From the NCBI GenBank assembly GCA_027604665.1, contig JADGIZ010000423.1, forward strand, positions 1 to 13,910: a stretch of DNA of 13,910 nucleotides, written 5' to 3'. The notes below the pieces were generated by a model. That model saw only the letters and a list, made by a program, of their open reading frames with translations, did not search any database and was not told the origin of the DNA. The stretch's first letter is position 1; each line of letters opens with the position of its first letter. Shown here in pieces: positions 1 through 13,822 of the stretch. Source of the stretch: Polyrhizophydium stewartii (Eukaryota; Chytridiomycota; Chytridiomycetes; Rhizophydiales). A program made the position numbers and the translations under genes.

Positions 1-527
1 TCCAAGGTGACGTCGTGCAACCTGTCGGGCACGTCGCTGTGCTCGTCGGGCGATGCGCCGGCCGTGTGCAACGCCCCGTCGTGTGAGTCGCCGCTGCGGC
101 CTTTGTGACCGCCGCGTCGATCGCGCTGACACCATTGCGTTCAGGCCCGACGACGAGCAGCGGACTGAGCGGCGGCGCCATTGGTGGCATCGTTGCAGGT
201 GTTGTGGTTGTCATTGCGGCCGTCGCGGTGTTTGTCTGGTTCCGAATGCGTGGTCAGCAAGCACCATGGAATGCGATCTCGACAGTCGAGCGTGGCACCT
301 CGCCCCTGAAAGTCATCAAGCCGTCAGCAGCAGCGTCGCAACCTCAGAGGTCTGAGCGACGAACAACATCATCGTCTGGGTGCGAACTGCCGTTGCAGAC
401 GGGGACCGCCAACACACTGCCAAGCTTTGCGACCATGTCCGATGGAAGCGCTCCGAGAGGTGCGAACTGTTGTTGCTCTGTTGCATGTTGTTTGACTAAT
501 GAGACAAACACGGCGAACCCAATATAG
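1..527 (+). CDS. LRR receptor-like protein A, 3' part (C-cap, membrane helix, short tail)
   Basis: Two exons are visible: 1-82, cut by the window edge, and 145-527. They are separated by a 62-nt intron (GTGAGT donor, CTGAC about 15 nt before the AG). The first exon encodes an LRR C-cap with cysteines spaced C-x7-C-x8-C-x4-C; the last Cys codon is split by the phase-1 intron. The second exon opens Cys-Pro-Thr-Thr-Ser-Ser. It then encodes a Gly/Ala/Val-rich membrane helix (GGIVAGVVVVIAAVAVFVWF) and a basic stop-transfer (RMRGQ). The cytoplasmic tail is about 90 residues with no kinase. By analogy with related LRR proteins this would be a type I surface receptor or adhesion protein; ligand unknown. 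The C-cap DNA is closest to gene C, while the helix exon is closest to gene B. The tail lacks the LVER...LGV ending shared by B and C and ends in a Cys cluster, so this copy may be diverged or decaying. The splice is well supported; function is inferred. Confidence 0.72.
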
Positions 528-570
528 GGCTTCGCCGCGCCTTGTCTTTGCTTCATTCCATGCCGCACAT

Positions 571-2593
571 ATGGCGCGCACTACCGGCGCAACACGAACA
601 CGACCGATTTTTAGGCGGGCTACCATTTTCACTGTTTCAGCTCTCTCAGCCTTTCCAGCCTCACTTTTCACAAGGTTTACCTTAAATCGCCCAAGCCCCA
701 TGTCAACCGACTGCACGGCGCTCTCGGGGGCGTTCCCGTCGCTCGCCCTGCCAGCCAACTGTTGCTCCGACTCGCGCGTGGCATGCCTGAACGACCGCGT
801 CACGAGCATGTGAGTGCGCCGCCGGCATGTGCACGGGGGGGGGGAGCGGCTGCTCTGGCGTGCCTTACAGCGGCCCCTGACGCCCCATTCCGCTCCTGCT
901 CTTTGTGCGGGGCTGTGCCTGCGGCGCGTTTTTGTGTCTCTCGACCGCCCTGCCTTCCAGCAACTTCCAGTCGAGCCAGCTCTCGGGGCCGCTGTCGCAG
1001 GCGCTGTCGCAGCTCACGGTGTTGCGCTCGATGTGAGTCTGCTGCTCCACAATGCCCATCCGCTCTGTCCCATGCTGTCTGTGGTGCAAGGTCCTTCTTC
1101 AACAACTCGCTCTCGGGGCCGCTCCCCACATGGATCGGCGATATGGGCTTGCTCTCAACGCTGTACGAGCATTACTTGCCTCTGAGCTTGCCTCTGCGGT
1201 GCGCTGACTCGAATGTGCGCGAGCAGTGACCTCAGGCAGAATCGCCTCAACGGCACGATCCCCGACTCGCTTGGCAAACTTACCGGGCTGCAGACGCTGT
1301 GAGTGTCGCTGGATGCTGAGCAGCAGCCTGCCGTGGCATGTGGCTGACCAGCTAAGCGTAGGCTGATCGGCCAGAACAACTTTGCCCTGCCTGTTCCCGA
1401 GTCCCTGGGCAATCTGCAAGATCTGACGGTCCTGTGAGTGAGCTCGCATTTTGTCGTGATGGCCAGCTGCAGTCCGTGCTGACTCTGGACGCAGGGGCCT
1501 GAACGGCCTGTCGTTTGCGATTCCACTTCCCGCATGGATCGGAAAGCTCACGTCGCTGACCTTCCTGTGAGCGCATTGTGTGACAGGCGTCCGCGAGTTG
1601 CGGGTGTGCTGCTGACCGCCGCCGTGCAGCAACGTGGCCGCGTCGGGATACACCGGTCCGGTTCCCGAATGGTTTGGCAACCTCAAGTCGCTGCAGACGC
1701 TGTGAGATTTGCTTGGCGGCTCGCCCGCGACGACGCCGAGGCTGACTCGGCGAGTCACAGTTACATCTTTGGAAACAACCTTGAGGGCACGATCCCAGCC
1801 TCGTTCTTGCAGATCCGCAACCTCACGACTTTGTGAGCCAGCGCTGGTTTTGGCTGGGGTGCGACCTTGCGTGCTGCTTCTCTGACATCCGTGATCCCAG
1901 CTATATCAACAACAACCCTAAGCTCACGGGCGAGCTTCCGGCCACGCTCTACTCGCAGGCTTCTTGCCTGGCGTCTGGAACCAAGCTGTGCTCGAACAAC
2001 ACGAAAATCCAAAGCCTTTGCAAGCTGTCCGCATGTGAGTTGGCACAAGCCGGTGCCTTTTGGTGCACCTGGCTGTACTGACGTTTGAAATCACAGGCCC
2101 GGACAGCAGTAGCGGATCCAGCGGTAGTGGCAGCAGCAATAGCAACAGCAGCGGCGACAATGCCACGGCCAGCACCAACAGCGGGCTGAGCGGCGGCGCG
2201 ATCGGTGGCATCATGGCGGGAGTCGTGATTGTGATTGCGGCTGTCGCGGCAGTTGTGTGGTTCCGCATGCGCGGCCAGACCAACAAGTCGAAAACTAGCA
2301 TGACCGCCACAACTGTTGATCGTGCCACCTCTCCACCTGTTTTATCAAACTCGTCCCAATCTTTGTCTGCGGATCCCAGTCTCGCACAGCAAGCTATGGT
2401 ACCCTCGGGAAGCGGCTTTGCTTCCTATAACGATGAACTTCGCTCTCTACAAACCTTGTCTACGACGTCCCAGGGATCGGTCGCAAGAATGGCAGAGTTC
2501 AGCGATTACGGAGGAAGAGTCGAGAGGCCTGCCATTCTTGTCGAGAGATCATCTCCTCCAGTTGCGAGCCTGGGTGTCAGTCGTGCACGTTGA
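571..2593 (+). CDS. LRR receptor-like protein B (N-cap, 7 single-exon LRRs, C-cap, TM, short tail)
   Basis: Ten exons join in one frame: 571-809, 961-1032, 1091-1162, 1227-1298, 1362-1433, 1495-1566, 1630-1701, 1761-1832, 1901-2034 and 2097-2593, giving about 457 residues. Exon 1 holds an N-cap with cysteines C-x15-CC-x6-C. Exons 2-8 are each exactly 72 nt, phase 2 at both ends, and encode one 24-residue LRR of the LxGxIPxxLGxL type (e.g. LDLRQNRLNGTIPDSLGKL). Exon 9 (134 nt) gives half an LRR plus the C-cap C-x7-C-x9-C-x4-C. Exon 10 encodes a Ser/Gly/Asn-rich stalk, a helix (GGIMAGVVIVIAAVAAVVWF), RMRGQ and a tail of about 100 residues ending LGVSRAR. No kinase is present. Inferred role: surface recognition or adhesion. 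The start is uncertain. ATG 571 gives a basic then hydrophobic leader (ATIFTVSALSAFPASLF) that could be a signal peptide; ATG 702 would leave none, and in-frame ATG 499 overlaps gene A. Confidence 0.8.
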
Positions 2594-2714
2594 AGTTTCA
2601 CCGATCATGCAAAGTGTAGCCGTTCTAGCCTTATCAAATGCCATGCAAACTAGTGATCGGGATAAATTCACCCACACTCAGCTGTTGAAAAGTGGCACGC
2701 TTGGGGCTGTCAGC

Positions 2715-2720
2715 AATAAA
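2715..2720 (+). promoter_or_regulatory. Polyadenylation hexamer AATAAA for LRR gene B
   Basis: A canonical AATAAA lies 121 nt after the TGA of LRR gene B on the same strand. The sequence between is less GC-rich than the neighbouring coding DNA, as expected of a 3' untranslated region. A single hexamer can occur by chance, but its position fits. Confidence 0.45.
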
Positions 2721-2818
2721 GCTTGCTGAGATGCTGCCAATGTGGCGAGCTGTCTTGAATTGTACTGTGGATTTGGATGTGGCTCGCATCTTGAAATTCC
2801 GCCCCGCAAGTCGGGGCT

Positions 2819-3793
2819 GTGTTTCGGTGCCACCACGGATCGGGCACCATGCCGAGGTTTCACCGACGAGGCCATGGCTGCGATGCGATCGGGGAGGCAT
2901 GGGCCACGCACGGTGGCATCCGTAGTGAGTCGACATATGCACGTACGGCGCACCAGTTCCGCGTCGCTGGCGAGCCGTGGGCGTCCAACTCGGACGCTAA
3001 GGATACCGATGGGCCCAAGATCGTCGCGGCTGTGGTCGAGGCCGCGCTGCGCACGTATGCATGCGTCAGCACAACCACGACCAAGAGCATCTGGTTCCAG
3101 GACCACGAGCCGCAGGCGGCCAACCGCGTTGGGCTTGATACGCGGGTCTTCCAGGCGCCGCTCGGCGCGCTCGAGGCGGCGGCAGGCGCGACGGACGGCG
3201 CGGCCGTGCACGCGGGCATCCCCGTGCCGCCGGCCAACGCCGTGTCAGTCATGTGCCTGGCAATCCGCGGCTTGAGCTTGCTGCGGCTGGCGGCGGGATC
3301 TATCTCGGAGCTTGCGCTGCTGATTGAGATGGTGATCGCGGCGTCGTGGCCGCGCGGAAGCAGCCGGCCAAAGTCAGCGTGGGCGGGCCGCGCGGTCGAC
3401 TTCCAGCTGCACAGCACGCCGTGGTACTGGGCCGAGGCAGGTGCGCTCGAGGGCCGGCTGTTTGTGCTGCGGATGCTCGGCGTGCTCGCTGCGATGGGCT
3501 GGCACATTGTCGCACTGGTGGTCTTGCAGCCCATTGTCGCACCAATTGCCATGGAGAAAACCGTCATCAGGAACAGGCACAAAGCCGGCATCGCAAACAG
3601 AGGGTGGCGCTCCAGCTCTCGCACCTTCTGTGCATTCCGCTTCGGCCACCGCATCCGCCTGCCGCCCGCTGCGCCGACACAGGTATGTGCGCAGGCACCC
3701 ATCCATCCGGCGCGCGCACGCCCAATGCCCGCGCGCGCACAGACGCAGGCAACCCCTGCTGCGTTTGTCCAGGCTCGCATGCTCATTTGTTGA
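2819..3793 (+). CDS. Unrecognised ORF with hydrophobic segments (boundaries uncertain)
   Basis: I do not recognise this protein. From about 2930 to 3600 the frame uses G or C at most third codon positions and has a normal residue mix, as expected of real coding DNA. Before about 2930 and after about 3600 the frame looks less convincing, so the true gene may be a spliced subset. A moderately hydrophobic stretch near 3275-3350 (LSLLRLAAGSISELALLIEM) is followed by a clear membrane-helix candidate near 3470-3555 (MLGVLAAMGWHIVALVVLQP). An aromatic patch, STPWYWAEAGALEGR, lies between them. A GTATGT donor-like site at 3683 could end an exon. The phase there (0) does not fit the phase-2 entry of the LRR exon at 3904, so it is unlikely to be the 5' part of gene C. 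A long - strand ORF overlaps it but looks like its antisense shadow. Confidence 0.4.
   Translation: MFRCHHGSGTMPRFHRRGHGCDAIGEAWATHGGIRSESTYARTAHQFRVAGEPWASNSDAKDTDGPKIVAAVVEAALRTYACVSTTTTKSIWFQDHEPQAANRVGLDTRVFQAPLGALEAAAGATDGAAVHAGIPVPPANAVSVMCLAIRGLSLLRLAAGSISELALLIEMVIAASWPRGSSRPKSAWAGRAVDFQLHSTPWYWAEAGALEGRLFVLRMLGVLAAMGWHIVALVVLQPIVAPIAMEKTVIRNRHKAGIANRGWRSSSRTFCAFRFGHRIRLPPAAPTQVCAQAPIHPARARPMPARAQTQATPAAFVQARMLIC
3625..3682 (+). repeat. Direct repeat, copy 1 (58 nt)
   Basis: This 58-nt segment recurs at 3801-3858 with about five mismatches (about 91% identity) and an offset of 176 nt. Both copies end in the same string, GCGCCGACACAG. Here the copy is followed by a donor-like GTATGT; the second copy is not. 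It lies at the 3' end of the unrecognised ORF, just before the first recognisable exon of LRR gene C. Confidence 0.75.
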
Positions 3794-3800
3794 ATAACAC

Positions 3801-3858
3801 ATTCTGCGCATTCCGCTTTGGCCGCCGCTTCCGCCTGCCGCCCGCCGCGCCGACACAG
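3801..3858 (+). repeat. Direct repeat, copy 2 (58 nt)
   Basis: Second copy of the segment at 3625-3682. The DNA between the copies includes alternating GCGCGC runs near 3710-3740. The duplication sits 45 nt upstream of the first LRR exon of gene C, where an N-cap exon would be expected but is not seen. A local rearrangement may have removed or displaced the 5' end of gene C. Confidence 0.75.
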
Positions 3859-3903
3859 CGCGACTCGGGAGCCAAAGTCGTGACATGACTTGGGCGGCCG
3901 CAG

Positions 3904-5745
3904 GTATCTGGACCACAACCAGTTCACGGGGTCGATCCCAGACTCGCTCGGCAAGCTCACGGCACTCACGGCGCTGTGTGTGCTTGCGTGATCGGCTCAG
4001 AGCTCGGAGGGAGACTGCTGACAACTTGCGTTGGCTGGACATGCAGGTCGCTCAACAACAACCAGCTCTCGGGTCCGATTCCGTCGTCGCTCGGCAACCT
4101 GGCGCAGCTTCAGTCCCTGTGCGTTTGCATGTGCTGCTGCGATATCGTTTCAATTTGCCGATGACCATGCGACTCCAGTGATCTGAGTGGGAACCAACTC
4201 AGCGGCGAGGTCCCGTCGTCGCTGGGCAGCCTCACCTCGCTCACAGCCTTGTGAGTTTCGCGCGAAAGCCTGGATGCTGTTCGTCAGATGGATGGTCATG
4301 ATACGTCGGTGCTGACACATGGGACGACTGCAGGGGCTTTGGAACCAACCAGCTGTCGGGCAGGATCCCCTCGTCACTGGGCAACCTTGTGAACCTGACC
4401 AGATTGTGAGCGGCCGCGGACTGGATGCCTGTGTGACTCTGTCGATGCATGGCTGACAGTCTTGCCGTTACGTGCGGCAGGTTCCTGGACACGAACCAAT
4501 TCTCAGGCTCTGTGCCGTCGTCGTTCAGCAAGTTGACCAAGCTGACCAACTTGTGAGTCGCTGCTGGTTGGCGGTCGCGGGCGAGGCAGCAGCGATCGCC
4601 GCACTGACGCCGCAAGCCGCAGCTGGCTCGAGTCGAACACGCAGCTCTCTGGCGAGCTGCCATCGACGATCAATCCCAGTGCCGAGTGCAGGATGAGCCG
4701 CACCAACATCTGCACAAGCAGCCCAAGCTTGCAGACGCTCTGCAGCCTGCCCGCATGTGAGCGGATCTTGAACTTGCATCGCTGCTGGCACCACCAGGAT
4801 GCTGACGCTGCATGCAAAGGCCCGACATCCAGCAACTGCGCGATCCCAGTCGGTCTCTTCCCCACGCTCGACTTTGGCAACAACTGCTGCACGTCCGGAT
4901 ATGCCACCTGCAGCAACGGCGTGATCACGGGGCTGTGAGTGTGCGAGCGGCGAGCGGGCTGCCTCGACTCGCGCAGCTGCTGACGCACGCATCGGCCGCG
5001 GCAGCACACTCTCTGGCGCCAACCTGACGGGCTCGCTGTCGCCGCTGCTCTCTGGGCTCACCAACGTCACGTCGCTGTGAGTCTGGGCTGCAGCGAGATC
5101 GGTGCTGGCTGCTTCCCAGTGTGCGGCAACTGACGCCTGCTGCAGCGACCTGTCCAACAACCTGCAGCTGTCCGGCCCGCTGCCGTCTGGACTGTCCAAA
5201 GTGACGTCGTGCAACCTGTCGGGCACGTCGCTGTGCTCGTCGGGCGACACACAGGCAGTCTGCAACGCCCCGGCCTGTAAGATGGTTGCCGGATGCCTGC
5301 CGTTTGGCCGATCACACTGACGACGCTACGCGCAGGCCCGTCTGAGGGCGTTTCCAAGACTCCGTTAATTGGCGGCTTGGTCGGAGGAGCCGTTCTTCTG
5401 ATTGCCGGCGTCGTGGGCTTCTTGTGGTACCGGATGCGCACGCAACCCGAGGCTGAGCCGCAGCTGCCCATGACACACAAGACATCGTTTTCTCGGCTCA
5501 AGTTCACGCCGAGCCCGTCGCCGTCGTTCCCGTCGATGGGCGAGGCGGTTAGTGGCGACTACAGCCTCAGCACGACACCTTCGACTATGCCTGGCGCTGG
5601 TGGGGTCCCCGCGCAGCCCGCGCGCCTGATCGACTATGGGGCCGGGATGCCCGCAACAGCGCCGTCGCGGCCGGCCGCGGCAATGTTGGTCGAGCGGCCG
5701 ATGGGCCCGCCGGCGCCGGACCTTGGAGTCACCCGCCCGCGTTGA
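3904..5745 (+). CDS. LRR receptor-like protein C with two serial LRR modules, TM and short tail (5' end unresolved)
   Basis: Ten exons join in frame: 3904-3975, 4047-4118, 4179-4250, 4334-4405, 4481-4552, 4623-4756, 4820-4934, 5005-5076, 5146-5276 and 5336-5745, about 406 residues. The first five are single-LRR exons of 72 nt (e.g. SLNNNQLSGPIPSSLGNLAQ). The 134-nt exon closes module 1 with a C-cap C-x7-C-x9-C-x4-C. Exon 4820-4934 then encodes a second N-cap with exactly gene B's spacing, C-x15-CC-x6-C. One further LRR, a second C-cap (C-x7-C-x8-C-x4-C) and a membrane helix (LIGGLVGGAVLLIAGVVGFL) follow, then RMRTQ and a tail ending LGVTRPR. No kinase is present. The first exon needs a phase-2 exon upstream; no N-cap or signal peptide is visible between 2594 and 3903, so the gene is either truncated or has a distant first exon. 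Inferred role: surface receptor or adhesion. Confidence 0.78.
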
Positions 5746-8053: not shown

Positions 8054-9692
8054 ATGTCGCTGCCAAGCGTCCTCGCTCAGCAGCCGCCCGCCGCAGACGC
8101 CGAGGCGCCCGCGCCGCCCGCGGCTGACGGCGGCGCCGCCCAGCAGCCCGACGCAGTGCCCTCGCTGGCCGAGCGGCTGTGGGACATCACCACCGCATAC
8201 GTGCCCCTCACGTACACGTCCTTTGGCGGCCCGCAGGTCCACATTGCCATGTACATCCACGAGTTTGTCGAGAAGCGCAAGTGGCTGCCCAGCAACGTCT
8301 TTGCGGAGCTGTTCGCCATCGCCCAGGCGCTGCCCGGCCCCGCGTCGACGCAGCTCGGGTACAGCATCGGCCTCATCCGCGGCGGCGTTGCCGGCGGCCT
8401 GCTGTCCTTCTTCATTTGGAGGTGCGTCGGGCGTCGTCGCCCGTGTTTGCGTCTGTCGCCTCTGCCGCCGCCTCATCGAACCCGGCCGTGGCGCCCGCTG
8501 ACGCCATCGCGCGATCCACCCGCGCGATCCCACCCCTCCCCCTCCCGCGGACAGCTTCCCGTGCATGATTATCATGATGGGCTTTGGCATCGGCGTCTCG
8601 CAGCTCGGCTCGTCGCTGCCGCCCGTGGTCCTCTACCTCCAAAACGGCCTCACGTCCGCCGCCGTCGGCCTCGTCGCCCTCGCCGCTTACAAGCTCTGCA
8701 CCAAGCTGCTCGCCGACCGCATCTGCAGCGCCATTGGCGCCGTCTCGGCCATCCTCGCCATCAACCTCTACAAGCAGGCGTGGCTGTTCCCCGTGCTCAT
8801 GATTGCGGGCGGCACCGTCACGTTCATCGAGGCTCAGATCGCCGCCGCCGCGGAGCGCCGTGCGCGCGAGCAGGCGGCCATCTCGTCGTCCGAGGCCCGC
8901 GACGAGGCGCGCGCGCTGCAGCCCGGGTCCACGGCCGACAGCGGCGCACAGACGCCCAAGTCGGGCTCGAGCGGCAGCGGCGCCGCCGACGAGTCGACGT
9001 TTTTCAAGGTCCGCTTCTCGTACTCGCCGCGCACGGGCCTCGTGCTGCTCGGCATCTGGGCCGTGCTGCTCGTTGTCGCGATTGTGCTGCGCGGCATCGA
9101 CGCCCCGCGCCCGCTCAGCGTCCTCGGCACGCTCTACTTTGTCGGATCCATCATCTTTGGCGGCGGCCCTGTCGTGATCCCGCTGCTGCAGAACTACGTT
9201 GTCACCAACGGCTGGCTCAGCGACTCAGAGTTCCTCATTGGCCTCGCCATCATCAACGCCATGCCCGGTCCCAACTTCAACATCGCCGCGTACGTGGGCG
9301 CCCTCGCTCTCCGCGACAGCGTCGGCGCGAGCATCGGCGGCGCACTCCTCGGCAACATTGGCATCTTCCTGCCGGGCCTGCTGCTCATGTCGGGCCTCAT
9401 GCCGCTGTGGAACCAGTACCGCGCGCTCAAGTCGGTGCAGTCGGTCTTCCGCGGCGTCAACGCCGCCGCCGTGGGTCTCGTCGTCGCTGCCATTTACCTG
9501 CTCGGCCAAAAGACCATCACCCCGCCCCACAGCAGCGGCCTGGGCATCGTCGAGCCGCTCACCGATCACCCCATCTACATTGGCGTTGCCATCTTCTCGT
9601 ACACGGCGTCGGGATTCCTTGGCCTCCCCACGCCACTCGCCATCATCCTCGGCGGCATCTTTGGCATCATCCATTGGGGTATCTCCAGATAG
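8054..9692 (+). CDS. CHR-family chromate ion transporter, long two-domain form
   Basis: Two exons, 8054-8421 and 8555-9692, join across a 133-nt phase-2 intron (GTGCGT donor) to give about 501 residues. The protein has the duplicated CHR (ChrA) architecture. The N-half carries TSFGGPQVHIAMYI and AQALPGPASTQLGYS; the C-half carries the matching FGGGPVVIPLLQ and NAMPGPNFNIAAYVG. A Ser/Ala/Glu-rich cytosolic linker (about 8880-9000) joins the halves. CHR proteins are multi-pass membrane transporters; bacterial members export chromate, sometimes linked to sulfate, while fungal substrates are less certain. ATG 8054 is chosen as the first in-frame ATG. The codons just upstream would add a hydrophobic signal-like stretch, but an in-frame TGA at 7997-7999 and the absence of an ATG mean that reading needs a TTG start. 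The intron and codon use match the neighbours, so this is a resident gene rather than recent bacterial DNA. Confidence 0.93.
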
Positions 9693-9775: not shown

Positions 9776-9840
9776 TTCTAAATGCACCATTTAGTCATTG
9801 CACTCGTGCGGCCGATCAGCACATAGAAACACATGCCCAT

Positions 9841-10155
9841 ACTGACGCCTCCAAGTGGGGCCTAGGCGGCTGGATAGGGCAGCGGCAAGAGGACATCCAG
9901 ATCCACCCTGTGCTTTTCTGGTCGCGCAAGCTGCGCGACGCAGAGTGTCCAAACTCACCATTCAACCTCGAGTTCTTGGCGATGGTGGAGATGCTGGACA
10001 AGCACCGGCATCTTCTCGAGCCATTGACTTTCAGCGTCTGGACTGACCACAAGCCGTTGGTCAAGATTGAGTCCTTGAGCGACTCCTCAATCATGGCCAA
10101 TGACTTGTGGTCGGCCCAGACGCTGAACGTGAGCAGCTCAAGCAGATCTCGATGA
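9841..10155 (+). mobile_element. Ty3/Gypsy RNase H fragment, + strand arm
   Basis: The + strand frame opens with TDASKWGLGGWIGQ, continues with HPVLFWSRKLRD and FNLEFLAMVEMLDKHRHLLE, and reaches FSVWTDHKPLVKIE. This is the usual order of Ty3/Gypsy RNase H motifs (TDAS, FxSRKL, E-x-E-like core, TDHKPL). It stops after about 105 codons. From about 10078 onward this frame is reading the antisense of the opposite arm rather than element sequence. No LTR, integrase or intact RT accompanies it. A weakly matching segment extends the arm back to about 9797, where an in-frame TAG breaks it. It is a dead fragment. Confidence 0.85.
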
Positions 10156-10316
10156 TTGTCCAGCATCTCAACTAGTGCCATGAACTCAAGGTTGAATGGC
10201 GCGTTTGCAATTTCCGGATCATGCAGCTTGCGCGACCAGTAGAGCACCGGGTGGATCTGGTTATCATCGTGGCACTGTCCAATCCAGTCGCAAAGGCCCT
10301 GCTTGGAGGCGTGGGT
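9841..10316. repeat. Large imperfect palindrome made from two RNase H arms
   Basis: Position 9841 (start of TDAS on +) pairs with 10316 (start of THAS on -), which puts the centre near 10077-10079. The arms are about 238 nt each and, by eye, about 75-80% identical as reverse complements. Blocks such as CAGCGTCTGG with CCAGACGCTG and GACCACAAG with CTTGTGGTC flank the centre, with almost no spacer. Transcription through it would give a long imperfect hairpin. Confidence 0.85.
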
Positions 10317-10700
10317 GCAGACGTGCGTCTGTCTGGACGGCCTCGCATCGTGGCCATGATGATTACAGTTGGATTTATATTTGGGGTTTCCCCTGTCGAT
10401 AAACACACGCTTCAGACGCGCACGTTTGCCGTCCCCAGAACCGCCCGTCACCCGTCGCCCCACGCACCCGTCACACCCCGTCGAGCTCCAGGAACCACCC
10501 GTGGCTTCCGGAGTTCTTTCAGCGTCTCCTTGGCCGGGTAAAAGTAGCGCAGCACGGGCGCCGACGGCTTCGGAGTGCTTGGCAGTCCACTTCCACTTGG
10601 CTCTCTTGCGCATCAGGTTTGTGAGCGTGGCCGCGAGGCCCGCGACACACGAGATGAACTCGCACATCCAGTTGACCGCCGCACGAGCAATCTGACCAGT
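10079..10700 (-). mobile_element. Ty3/Gypsy RT-RNase H remnant, - strand
   Basis: Read on the - strand, the segment near 10680-10560 resembles the end of a Gypsy reverse transcriptase (AVNWMCEFISCVAGLAATLT, then RKRAKWKWTAKHSEA). A frame change and small deletion follow, then SAPVLRYFYPAKETL, the usual RT-to-RNase H junction. About 190 nt of unrelated-looking DNA (about 10320-10505) then intervenes. The RNase H part resumes as THASKQGLCDWIGQ, HPVLYWSRKL, FNLEFMALVEMLDNHRDLLE and FSVWADHKSL. Asp of the TDAS motif is replaced by His, so even the intact part would lack a catalytic acid. It is a pseudogene-like element fragment. Confidence 0.75.
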
Positions 10701-10847
10701 GACGGAGGTGTCGCCTGGCGCACTTTGGGTGTCATTGACCGGGCGATGCCAGTGCTGGAACCATGCGATCAGAGCACCGCACATCAGCAACCCTCATTGC
10801 AGATGTTATAAGCGGGCCGGCAGTTACTCGTGGCAACGGGGACTGAC

Positions 10848-11192: not shown

Positions 11193-13170
11193 TCACGCTG
11201 CCCACTGGGTCCCCGAGCGCCGTGCGGCATCGGCCGTGCCCGCGATGCCACCCGCGAGCCCGAGCGACACCAGCAGCACGTCGACGGCCACCTCCCACCA
11301 CGCCAGCGTCGGCAGAAAGAGCACCAGGTGGCATGCGCATGGGAACACGAGCGTGATGAAGAACGAGAAAAGCGCGCCGACAAGACTGATGAGGTGCGTG
11401 AAGTTTGGGAAGCATGTGCTCACAAAGAGCACGAGGATCCCGAGCGCCGTGCGCACGGCGACACGCAGGGCTATGGGCGCCGGGACGTTATGCGGTGTAC
11501 GGCGTGCACTTGCGTTTGCGCCTTGAGATATCTCGTGGGTGGTTGTGGCAGTGATGTGTGCGTCCGTATGCGGGATGCCTGCCGAGCCGTCGACTCGCGA
11601 AGCGGCCGCTTGCGCCGCTTGCTGGATCATGCGCTCAAAGACATGAGCGACGGGGTTCATTAACAGCGCGTACTCTGCAGACAGTGCTGTCAGTCCCGTC
11701 ATCGACTGTTTGTGCCTTGCACTGCGAGACCCAACTGCATGTCGGTACGATAATCAGGATCCACAACAGCATGCTGTTCAGCGGCTTGCTGTATCCAGGC
11801 GCTGTGTACAGGTTGAGCGTAAACTCTTCCTCAATGTCTGCGCCGAACATGAGGTACACGGCGGTCGAGACAGACACAAACCAGACAAAGATGGCAATCT
11901 GCGCTCGGCTCGAGTGAGCAGGGCAGCCAGTCGGTTTTGCTGTCACCAGTGGCTGCGCACCATGTAGCTCAGGCTGATCATGGCGCGGAATTGCCGGGGA
12001 GATCGCATGTCCGTATAGATAGACGGGATCACGGAGTGTCCGCTGTATGTGAAGATGACAAGACCTGGCTCGATGCGGATGCCTCAGCTGGCAGCATCAG
12101 TGTGTATGCGCGCTATGCTGCCTCACCCATGTTGAGCAGCAGGAACGACCAATCCTGGGGCCAGAGCTGTGTCGCCGCGGGCTCCCACAGACTGCCCTGT
12201 CTCGTTTCATGGCGGCAACCATCAGCGAAGAGCATCCAACAGAGCGTGCAAGCGCACAGCGCACCGGTGCATGCGCGGCGGATATACCGTCGTATAGCGT
12301 GATGAACAGTAGCGACACGCTGGCCAAGATGCCCAGCGAGCTCGAGATGGACAGGACCGCCAGCGAGTCGACCCAGCTGGACGCGATCATGACCGCGGCT
12401 GCAACGACCTTGAGATGCGACAGCTGCAGCGCGGGCCACAGCGCCTTAAGCGTGTCGCCCACGACAATGACGTAGCTGATGCCGCAGCTCATGAGCTCAA
12501 AGACATAGACGCTGGACACCAGCCAGCGGCCCCGCGCGCCAAATGCCAGCTGGCCAATGTCGCCCAGCGTGCGGATCTCTGGGTCCAGCTGCATGCACTT
12601 GATGAGCAGGAACGACGTGAAGAGCGTCGTGAACCCGCCGGCGAGGATGCAGCCGATGCCCATGATCCAACCGCCCGTCTTGAGCGTATACGGCAGCGAC
12701 AGCAGCGACAGACCGACGAGTAGGTTGACCGAGTTGATGACCGACTGCGTGAACGTGGATTTGGACATGCCCTCGAGTGGCGGTATATCATGATCCGCAG
12801 GGGCAGCGTCACCAGTGTGCGGGGAGACATGCACATCGACGCCGGAGCTGTATCCGCGACGGGGTATCTGCGGCAGAAGGTGCGGGTGGGCAAGCAGCGG
12901 CGACGTCTCGTCCTCGGACACGACATAGCGGTCCGTGTCGTGGTCGCCGTCGTGGTCTGCGCCGTCTGGAGCGGACGAGCGCCGGCGCACGGCGAACAGC
13001 AGGCCGTCAAAGGTGTCGCGGCTGCTGTTCTCGGTGTGGCCGCCGACCGGCCGGCGATGCTGACTGGCGGTGCGCGAATGGGCCGCGGAATGCCGCCTCG
13101 AGCCGGTCCGCAAACCCTCGGGATCTTCGTCTATTGCGACGAGCGATGCCGCGCTGGCGCTGCCTGGCAT
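11193..13170 (-). CDS. AVT-type (AAAP family) amino-acid transporter
   Basis: On the - strand, exons 13170-12265, 12196-12127, 12064-11961, 11898-11731 and 11672-11193 join to give about 575 residues. A Ser/Arg-rich cytosolic N-terminus of about 130 residues precedes helix 1 (SVINSVNLLVGLSLLSLPYT), the conserved start of the amino-acid/auxin permease fold. Later landmarks also fit AVT proteins: a DG...PGSLWEPA loop formed by splicing, GHSVIPSIYTDM, then ALRVAVRTALGILVLFVS and LISLVGALFSFFITLVFP. Family members move amino acids across the vacuolar membrane. An acidic dileucine ETSPLL (about residues 88-93) matches AP-3-type vacuolar sorting signals. The fourth intron is ambiguous: the donor could be 11731|11730 (GTCTCG) or 11749|11748 (GTACCG). 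The start at 13170 is the nearest ATG; an upstream exon ending at 13291 is a credible alternative. Confidence 0.88.
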
Positions 13171-13290
13171 CGGCGGATGGTGCGGCGGGGCAGTGAGCCA
13201 CGGCGTCGCGTCCCTGGATCCGCCATGCGATGCAGGGGAGGGGGTCAGCCGGCGGCGGCGCGATGCGGGCGGGGTGCGGCGCGGCGGCAC

Positions 13291-13455
13291 CTGGCGAGCA
13301 GCGCGGCCCTGCGGGCGGTGTCGCTGAGAAACGACACGGCCGAGCGCACGCTGGCGGGCGGCGACGCGGCGAGCAGCGACGGCCGGCGCGGGATCGAGAT
13401 GCGCGACGACGCGCTGGGCGCCCTCGCGTGCCGCGTCCACGGGCCGCGGGCATCG
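13291..13455 (-). other. Candidate upstream coding exon of the AVT gene
   Basis: The - strand frame here encodes SSRISIPRRPSLLAASPPAS and then SVRSAVSFLSDTARRAALLA, a Ser/Arg-rich sequence of the kind seen at fungal transporter N-termini, with G or C at nearly every third position. It ends at 13291 in phase 2 before a GTGCCG. An acceptor at 13154, also phase 2, would join it to AASLVAIDEDPEGL of the AVT gene through a 137-nt intron. The donor is non-consensus for this window, so this is a possibility rather than a call. If right, the ATG at 13170 lies in the intron. Confidence 0.35.
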
Positions 13456-13822
13456 GCGGCATCGGCGGGCTCGGCGCGGTCGGCGGCTGCCGCCTGCGGC
13501 GGCGGGTGCGGCTGCCGCCCCGCCTGCGCTTCCATCTGGCGGCCAGCGCCCGCGCCTGCGCCGCCGCGCCGCCTCTTGCCCATGCGGGCCCACATGGCCG
13601 CGCATGCCCCTCGCCTGCCTGCCGCGTTTGGCCGCCGCCGCGCGTTTGGCGTTTCCCCCACCACTCCATGTTCTCGCGGTCGCTCTCGCTCGTCGCCCAA
13701 GGTCCGTGCGCTGCCGCCGCCATGCGCAGCCGCACCCGCCCGTGCACGCCCCGCGCTCGGCCTGCACGCTGACGCCGCCCGCAACTTGCGCGCATGCCCG
13801 CCCGCGCCGGCGCCCGCCGCAC
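13456..13822. other. GC-rich stretch without a supported gene
   Basis: Open frames on both strands are Arg/Ala/Pro-rich and mutually overlapping, typical of high-GC non-coding or leader DNA. On the - strand it lies between the dynamin exon and the AVT gene. It could be intron or 3' flank of the dynamin gene plus promoter of AVT. I looked for the dynamin continuation (a TKLD motif) and did not find it. Confidence 0.4.

What the first reader, a model, noticed from the sequence alone, without database searches (positions are those of the whole stretch)
2480..5745. Shared C-terminal tail motif in the kinase-less LRR receptors
Genes B and C have unrelated Ser/Pro-rich tails but the same ending: DYG, a short gap, PA-[IA]-x-LVER, a PP pair, then LGV[ST]R[AP]R at the very C-terminus (B 2505-2593; C 5629-5745). 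Strong conservation at the end of otherwise diverged tails points to a binding site for a common cytoplasmic partner, perhaps the signalling output that the missing kinase would supply. I know no named motif that matches.
Basis: partly seen in the sequence, partly recalled or inferred. Interest (0 to 1): 0.75.

Follow-up and report, generated by a model that had tools for sequence, protein, structure and literature searches.

The report
Shared tail motif in chytrid receptors
In a non-pathogenic chytrid fungus, a small family of membrane proteins that carry plant-like leucine-rich repeats but no kinase keeps one short peptide near the end of otherwise drifting, disordered tails, which looks like a docking site for an unknown partner inside the cell.

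Summary
The window matches predicted proteins of the chytrid Polyrhizophydium stewartii. B and C encode LRR-transmembrane proteins whose last exon carries TM plus tail; both tails end as described.

The tails are homologous but strongly diverged (34%), and DYG is in B and C only. Two paralogues on another contig (D, E) carry the reduced motif A-x-LVER-x(1,3)-P...L-[GS]-V-[ST]-R. LVER is in 5 of 7 subfamily tails in the held genome, the fuller ending in 4 of 7; A and its copy lack it. A distant paralogue (P0007) has LVER twice mid-tail. LVER uses different synonymous codons in B, C, D and E, so recent DNA copying does not explain it.

C's ectodomain is 96-98% identical to those of two other family genes where they align, while its tail exon is not. 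C and E look 5'-truncated, so the whole genes carrying the full ending here are B and D.

Best reading: a lineage-specific short docking motif (about 0.45). No known motif recalled here fits all copies, though a loose SUMO-interacting form fits 5 of 6. Partner and function are unshown.

The parts
700..2593 (+). Gene B: LRR-TM protein, exons 700-809, 961-1032, 1091-1162, 1227-1298, 1362-1433, 1495-1566, 1630-1701, 1761-1832, 1901-2034, 2097-2593 (seven LRR exons of 72 nt, one repeat each)
   Evidence: Splice model by hand and script, open throughout; homologous to P. stewartii predicted proteins P0001 and P0002
2192..2278 (+). Transmembrane helix of B with the basic residues of WFRMRGQ at and after its end
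   Evidence: Confident helix of the exon model, residues 32-60
2279..2593 (+). Ser/Pro-rich tail of B, predicted disordered
   Evidence: Block-mean pLDDT 44-56 over the tail (single-sequence model)
2528..2593 (+). Tail-end motif of B: PAILVERSSPPVASLGVSRAR*
   Evidence: Direct reading; alignment with C, D, E
3886..5745 (+). Gene C: LRR-TM protein, apparently 5'-truncated in this contig; exons 3905-3975, 4047-4118, 4179-4250, 4334-4405, 4481-4552, 4623-4756, 4820-4934, 5005-5076, 5146-5276, 5336-5745
   Evidence: ectodomain 96.4% identical to C75 and, over its last ~420 bases, 97-98% to C110
5365..5439 (+). Transmembrane segment of C, ending WYRMR
   Evidence: Alignment with B
5671..5745 (+). 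Tail-end motif of C: PAAAMLVERPMGPPAPDLGVTRPR*
   Evidence: Direct reading; alignment
1..524 (+). Gene A, 3' end only: cap exon, then TM plus tail exon from 147; tail lacks the motif
   Evidence: Translation; similar to E and to A' on C75
468..594 (+). 127-bp insertion with TGTTG...CAACA ends and 5-bp target duplication CGAAC, inside the tail frame of A; absent from the C75 copy
3885..3886 (.). Junction where the region downstream of B meets the middle of an A'-like ectodomain (C lacks its first exons)
   Evidence: Alignment to C75 switches exactly here
10330..10521 (.). 192-bp repeat also inserted in the ectodomain of gene E on C110 with 5-bp duplication AGCTG
   Evidence: 98.4% identity; flanks

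Best explanation
The tail end is a lineage-specific short linear motif, core A-x-L-V-E-R with a basic residue shortly upstream (five of six copies by eye; the second P0007 copy reads NTILVER), followed in B, C, D and E by proline and L-[GS]-V-[ST]-R, at or near the C-terminus of a disordered tail. It most likely docks a common cytosolic partner (adaptor or sorting protein) onto LRR-TM proteins that have no enzymatic domain. The hydrophobic A-x-L-V stretch between prolines would suit strand addition to a partner domain. Shown: presence, conservation against a diverged tail, synonymous codon change, recurrence of LVER in a paralogue, predicted disorder, and near-identical ectodomains on different tail exons. 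Inferred: cytoplasmic location, binding, any partner, any signalling role.
For: LVER in 5 of 7 subfamily tails in the held genome (B, B', C, D, E; not A, A') and the fuller ending in 4 of 7. End block 9 of 20 invariant columns against 4 of 58 elsewhere in the tail. Codons for LVER differ: L is CTT, TTG, CTT, CTC and R is AGA, CGG, CGC, CGA in B, C, D, E. P0007's tail has LVER twice; 0 of 200,000 shuffles had two, 240 had at least one. Tails are low-confidence and unstructured in two models. In a scan of the loci then held (to L094), only B, B', C, D and E had LVER within 45 residues of a stop after a strongly hydrophobic stretch. Ectodomains under constraint: dN/dS 0.17 for B vs B', 0.16 for C vs A'.
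Against: B' has lost [ST]R by a frameshift and A, A' lack the whole motif, so it is dispensable or those copies are decaying. C lacks its first exons in this contig, and E's ectodomain matches C's only over the last ~420 bases and is split by a 192-bp insertion, so of the four full endings only B and D sit in genes read whole. D lacks DYG and the PP pair; E carries an extension. The TM-tail exon of B vs B' shows moderate constraint (dN/dS 0.33 on 4+4 changes). One species only so far: a search with B's TM and tail found just P0002 among 1,024 candidates, and 0 of 7 Chytriomyces/Phlyctochytrium LRR-TM proteins have LVER. The core is not enriched genome-wide (58 places against 97 for the backward control). 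No partner known.
Confidence: 0.45

Rival explanations
1. Passive descent: the tails are homologous and the end simply has not yet diverged; no special function.
For: B and C tails are homologous (34%, E 4e-11); all but P0007 belong to one subfamily; A, A' lack it and B' has lost part of it; C and E may be truncated, non-working genes.
Against: The rest of the tail has lost most similarity (4 of 58 invariant columns), C's tail exon has no DNA-level match to the C75 and C110 copies, and synonymous positions inside LVER have changed while the residues have not. Two shifted copies in P0007 are not expected by descent alone.
Confidence: 0.27
2. Trafficking or quality-control signal: the end directs sorting (ER exit or retrieval, vacuole, cell surface) rather than signalling. 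Basic ends RAR, RPR, SRR resemble arginine-based ER signals (recalled); LV with an upstream basic residue is loosely dileucine-like.
For: A loose R.?R near the C-terminus is found in 4 of 4 of B, C, D, E.
Against: Patterns recalled from memory: acidic dileucine fits 0 of 6 copies, the extended form 2 of 6, YxxPhi 0 of 6. E's hit to the loose R.?R pattern lies in its C-terminal extension, not in the motif; B' has lost this end; the P0007 copies are internal.
Confidence: 0.2
3. DNA-level homogenisation: gene conversion copies the 3' ends, as something evidently does for the ectodomains.
For: Ectodomains of A', C and E are 96-98% identical where they align, so conversion or recent exchange operates in this family.
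Against: C's tail exon shows no DNA match to the C75 and C110 copies (best E 0.37), and the ends of B, C, D and E use different synonymous codons.
Confidence: 0.03

Closest known systems
Plant receptor-like proteins (LRR-TM without kinase)
   Same: LRR ectodomain of the 24-residue plant type, cysteine-bearing caps, single TM helix, kinase-less tail
   Different: No N-terminal signal peptide recognised by eye; fungal; one LRR per 72-nt exon; no such conserved tail end known to me from plant RLPs (recalled)
Chytrid LRR-TM-SAM proteins (Chytriomyces P0135-P0137, P0142, P0144, P0146; Phlyctochytrium P0094)
   Same: Start M-x(n)-DC, LRR, TM, Ser-rich tail
   Different: They end in a SAM-like domain (weak, below-cut-off Pfam hits in the two scanned; by eye in the rest) and have no LVER. 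A SAM search of the held P. stewartii genome found nothing (no positive control)
Fungal LRR receptors as surveyed in PMC2939053
   Different: That survey (49 fungi among 101 species) accepted five LRR receptors in four fungal species, one a chytrid, with no other functional domains (passages read); here several paralogues in one chytrid share a tail motif
Giardia variant-specific surface proteins (PF03302)
   Same: Sub-threshold Pfam resemblance around the TM segment (15.7 bits for the B exon, 17.3 for P0002; cut-off 31.4)
   Different: LRR ectodomain, and a tail of about 85-130 residues

Membership tests
LRR receptor-like protein | LRR ectodomain | tested here: met
   Pfam LRR_1, LRR_8, LRR_14 above cut-off in P0002 (gene D) and P0007; LRR-like solenoid in the P0007 model; B by homology
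LRR receptor-like protein | Single transmembrane helix before the tail | tested here: met
   Helix 32-60 of the B exon; helix 307-335 of P0007. No TM-prediction program was run
LRR receptor-like protein | No kinase domain | tested here: met
   No kinase in Pfam scans of P0002, P0007 and the B and C tail exons
LRR receptor-like protein | N-terminal signal peptide | tested here: inconclusive
   No signal-prediction program run. Models begin MSTDC, MSATADC, MSTAPEDC, MATATASQDC; upstream of D another frame ends about 150 bases away; an in-frame upstream ATG of B (571) would add a mildly hydrophobic leader
Acidic dileucine sorting signal | [DE]xxxL[LIV] (recalled) | tested here: not met
   0 of 6 copies
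YxxPhi sorting signal | YxxPhi (recalled) | tested here: not met
   0 of 6
SH3 class I / class II ligand | [RK]xxPxxP or PxxPx[RK] (recalled) | tested here: not met
   1 of 6 (E) and 0 of 6
MAPK D-site | basic pair then Phi-x-Phi (recalled) | tested here: not met
   1 of 6, B only
SUMO-interacting motif | hydrophobic core next to acid (loose form, recalled) | tested here: inconclusive
   5 of 6 fit the loose form [VIM][LI]VE; E does not; the form is too loose to decide
14-3-3, PDZ, WW ligands | 14-3-3 mode I and PPxY; C-terminal 14-3-3 mode III and PDZ class I (recalled) | tested here: not met
   Mode I and PPxY 0 of 6; the two C-terminal patterns 0 of 4, as the P0007 pieces are internal

The most novel reading that the evidence does not exclude
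Chytrid fungi have an expanded, recombining family of LRR surface receptors, in which ectodomains are exchanged onto different TM-tail exons while one dedicated peptide keeps the receptors plugged into the same signalling adaptor: an LRR recognition system in a kingdom reported to lack one.
Probability: 0.17. Interest if true: 0.82.

Novelty: new variant of a known kind. Interest (0 to 1): 0.5.

Why it matters
A 2010 survey (PMC2939053; abstract and passages read) concluded that LRR receptors are almost entirely absent from fungi. A chytrid with several recombining LRR-TM genes and a conserved kinase-less tail end gives a concrete handle, a peptide of about 20 residues, for finding what such proteins connect to inside the cell. 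P. stewartii is the non-pathogenic outgroup of Batrachochytrium dendrobatidis used in PMC12204190 (passages read), so presence or absence of the system across that split can be compared.

Tried and rejected
Genome-wide search for the core at DNA level (A-x-[LF]-V-E-[RS] with x restricted): 58 places against 97 for the backward control, so no genome-wide enrichment. All 58 were translated in the pattern's frame (plus the two in the window). The hydropathy scan (LVER within 45 residues of a stop after a hydrophobic stretch) kept only the five family loci; LVER farther from a stop was not tested that way.

LVER-x(1,3)-PP: 7, 4 and 3 listings against 2, 8 and 7 for the backward controls; 14 listings, 13 places, 4 of them family (B, B', C, E). 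Of the other 9, seven were read at least in part and, C399 apart, none shows the L-x-V-[ST]-R end; C212 and C531 were seen over 221 bases and C474 over 83 bases to its contig end, so their context is not settled. Two (C6, C24) encode FVER and were not fetched. C399 reads RLVEREDNPPRARGLGVDR* and looked like a further copy, but it lies antisense to an open frame on the other strand, with no LRR or TM seen in 1,011 bases: taken as a chance match, and a warning about such searches.

C75:23659 (AILVER) lies in another gene's neighbourhood, in a frame of 72 residues, and is taken as chance. The P0007 tail was not found in the held genome, which therefore looks incomplete. SAM-domain search of the held genome: nothing, but no positive control. 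LRR_8 search of the held genome: 48 matched places, not sorted into receptors. Papers: 'LVER motif' 0 papers; chytrid plus LRR plus SAM domain plus transmembrane 0; early-diverging fungi plus LRR terms 0; some searches gave listings, of which two papers were opened. Read: PMC2939053 (abstract and passages) and PMC12204190 (passages). Structure models of the tails are low-confidence and say only 'disordered'; no fold search was made. On re-checking, E's truncation was added, and the docking odds went from 0.50 to 0.45, passive descent from 0.22 to 0.27 and the novel case from 0.18 to 0.17.
Full report
Source. The B protein's best matches are predicted proteins of Polyrhizophydium stewartii (P0001, P0002, which lists 120 of 247 hits). 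By eye, P0002 is gene D on contig C110 of the window's own assembly and P0001 carries the A'-B' stretch of C75. P. stewartii is a chytrid of the order Rhizophydiales, described as a non-pathogenic, saprophytic relative of Batrachochytrium dendrobatidis (PMC12204190, passages). The held assembly is 12.86 Mb in 690 contigs and looks incomplete: the tail of P0007 is not in it.

Gene models. B spans 700-2593 in ten exons, seven of them 72 nt (one repeat each). C is readable from 3905 to 5745. In both, TM and whole tail lie in the last exon. The B exon model has one confident helix, the TM, and a low-confidence tail. The nine-sequence model of P0007 shows an LRR-like solenoid, a TM helix and a tail with pLDDT below 50 almost throughout. 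Kinase domains are absent from the family proteins and exons scanned.

The motif. Searching the genome with the TM-tail exons of B and C and the tail of E gave these subfamily tails: A, B and C in the window; A' and B' on C75; D and E on C110. LVER is in B, B', C, D and E (5 of 7). The fuller end A-x-LVER-x(1,3)-P...L-[GS]-V-[ST]-R is in B, C, D and E (4 of 7). B' matches B up to LGV, then a net loss of one base shifts the frame and 17 other residues replace SRAR. A runs into a 127-bp insertion and stops without the motif; A' has a stop just after the TM segment, another further on, and no motif. Three more distant LRR-TM tails that could be read (C110:22.9k, C525, C40) lack LVER; the tails of the LRR genes on C113 and C573 were not located. 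Among the 152 protein records fetched, LVER occurs in P0002, twice in P0007, and once each in two plant proteins. P0007, another P. stewartii LRR-TM protein, has ...VRAVLVERTDG... and ...NTILVERDPT... in mid-tail. A database search with B's TM and tail alone returned only P0002, so nothing like this tail was found outside the species at that sensitivity.

Is it selected? In the alignment of B, C, D and E, 9 of 20 gap-free end columns are invariant against 4 of 58 in the rest of the tail (P 0.00035, with the caveat that the block was chosen from B and C). Shuffled tails of D and E never gave the relaxed motif in 200,000 trials each, and shuffled P0007 tails never gave two LVER. The LVER codons differ between copies, including AGA against CGN arginines, which speaks against recent DNA copying of the end. 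Genome-wide the core is not enriched (58 places against 97 in the backward control), and one antisense chance match to nearly the whole pattern was found (C399), so the pattern means something only at the end of a TM tail.

Exchange of ectodomains. C's ectodomain (3886-5276) is 96.4% identical to that of A' on C75, introns included, and its last ~420 bases are 97-98% identical to E on C110, whereas C's tail exon has no significant DNA match to the C75 and C110 stretches (best E 0.37). The break lies at the end of the cap exon or in the last intron. dN/dS is 0.16 for C vs A' ectodomains and 0.17 for B vs B'. So the same ectodomain sits on different tail exons; C and E keep the motif while A' does not. 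At 3885/3886 the window joins the region downstream of B to the middle of an A'-like ectodomain, so C lacks its first exons here. E's match to C also ends abruptly (L021 1229) and its cap exon carries a 192-bp insertion. These may be real rearrangements or assembly joins; if real, C and E may no longer work, and the intact carriers of the full ending are B and D.

What it probably does. The pattern (disordered tail, short conserved core, proline flanks, variable spacing, duplication in a paralogue) is that of a short linear motif. Patterns recalled from memory for dileucine, YxxPhi, SH3, WW, MAPK docking, 14-3-3 and PDZ ligands do not fit all copies. A loose SUMO-interacting form fits 5 of 6 and cannot be excluded. 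I commit to docking of a common cytosolic partner at about 0.45, with passive descent (0.27) and a sorting signal (0.2) as rivals. That the tail is cytoplasmic is inferred from the basic residues after the TM segment. No signal peptide was recognised by eye, and LRR-outside topology is therefore unproven.

Context. Chytriomyces and Phlyctochytrium LRR-TM relatives (7 read) end in SAM-like domains instead (weak Pfam support in the two scanned) and have no LVER. A 2010 survey concluded that LRR receptors are almost entirely absent from fungi (PMC2939053, abstract and passages). I found no paper on this motif or on chytrid LRR-TM-SAM proteins nor in the listings, within an open-licence library only.

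Noticed in passing
window 700-712; L022 3083; P0007, P0135, P0094 N-termini: LRR-TM models of several chytrid genera start within a few residues of a DC motif with no signal peptide recognisable by eye; upstream of D another frame ends about 150 bases away. How the LRR domain would reach the outside is unclear.
   Followed up: partly
window 3886-5276; C75:24672-26058; C110:622-729 and 922-1229: Nearly identical ectodomain stretches (96-98%) sit on different TM-tail exons in C, A' and E: exchange at or near the last intron.
   Followed up: partly
window 3885/3886; L021 1229: Abrupt junctions: genes C and E both look 5'-truncated relative to the C75 copy.
   Followed up: partly
window 468-594: 127-bp insertion with TG...CA ends and CGAAC duplication in the tail frame of A; the C75 copy has the empty site.
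   Followed up: partly
window 10330-10521; L021 730-921: 192-bp repeat, inserted in the ectodomain of gene E with AGCTG duplication; in the window it lies beside a reverse-transcriptase RNase H open frame (9819-10790 minus).
   Followed up: partly
L015 (C562), L017 (C491): Ser-rich TM proteins whose tails run into an apparent SH3 domain (by eye): another kinase-less tail type in this genome.
   Followed up: no
L018 (C155:1325-1537 minus): TM protein tail ending in two similar blocks, FPIVEARPADQ and FPIMEPRRS, at the very C-terminus; could be a second tail-end motif.
   Followed up: no
window 8565-9689: Chromate transporter family domain (PF02417, E 3.2e-38) in a fungus.
   Followed up: no
window 11196-13767 minus: Two open frames with the two ends of an amino-acid transporter domain (PF01490), apparently one split gene.
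   Followed up: no
window 2819-3790; L060 2052-3125: Open frame beside the LRR genes with no Pfam hit and weak similarity to an open frame beside the LRR gene on C110 (output cut, E-value of the best match not seen).
   Followed up: no
P0001 (HK105_007375), P0002 (HK105_000375): Public model P0001 appears to fuse an upstream gene with A' and B'; P0002 loses the real end of D, so the motif is hidden in public annotation.
   Followed up: partly
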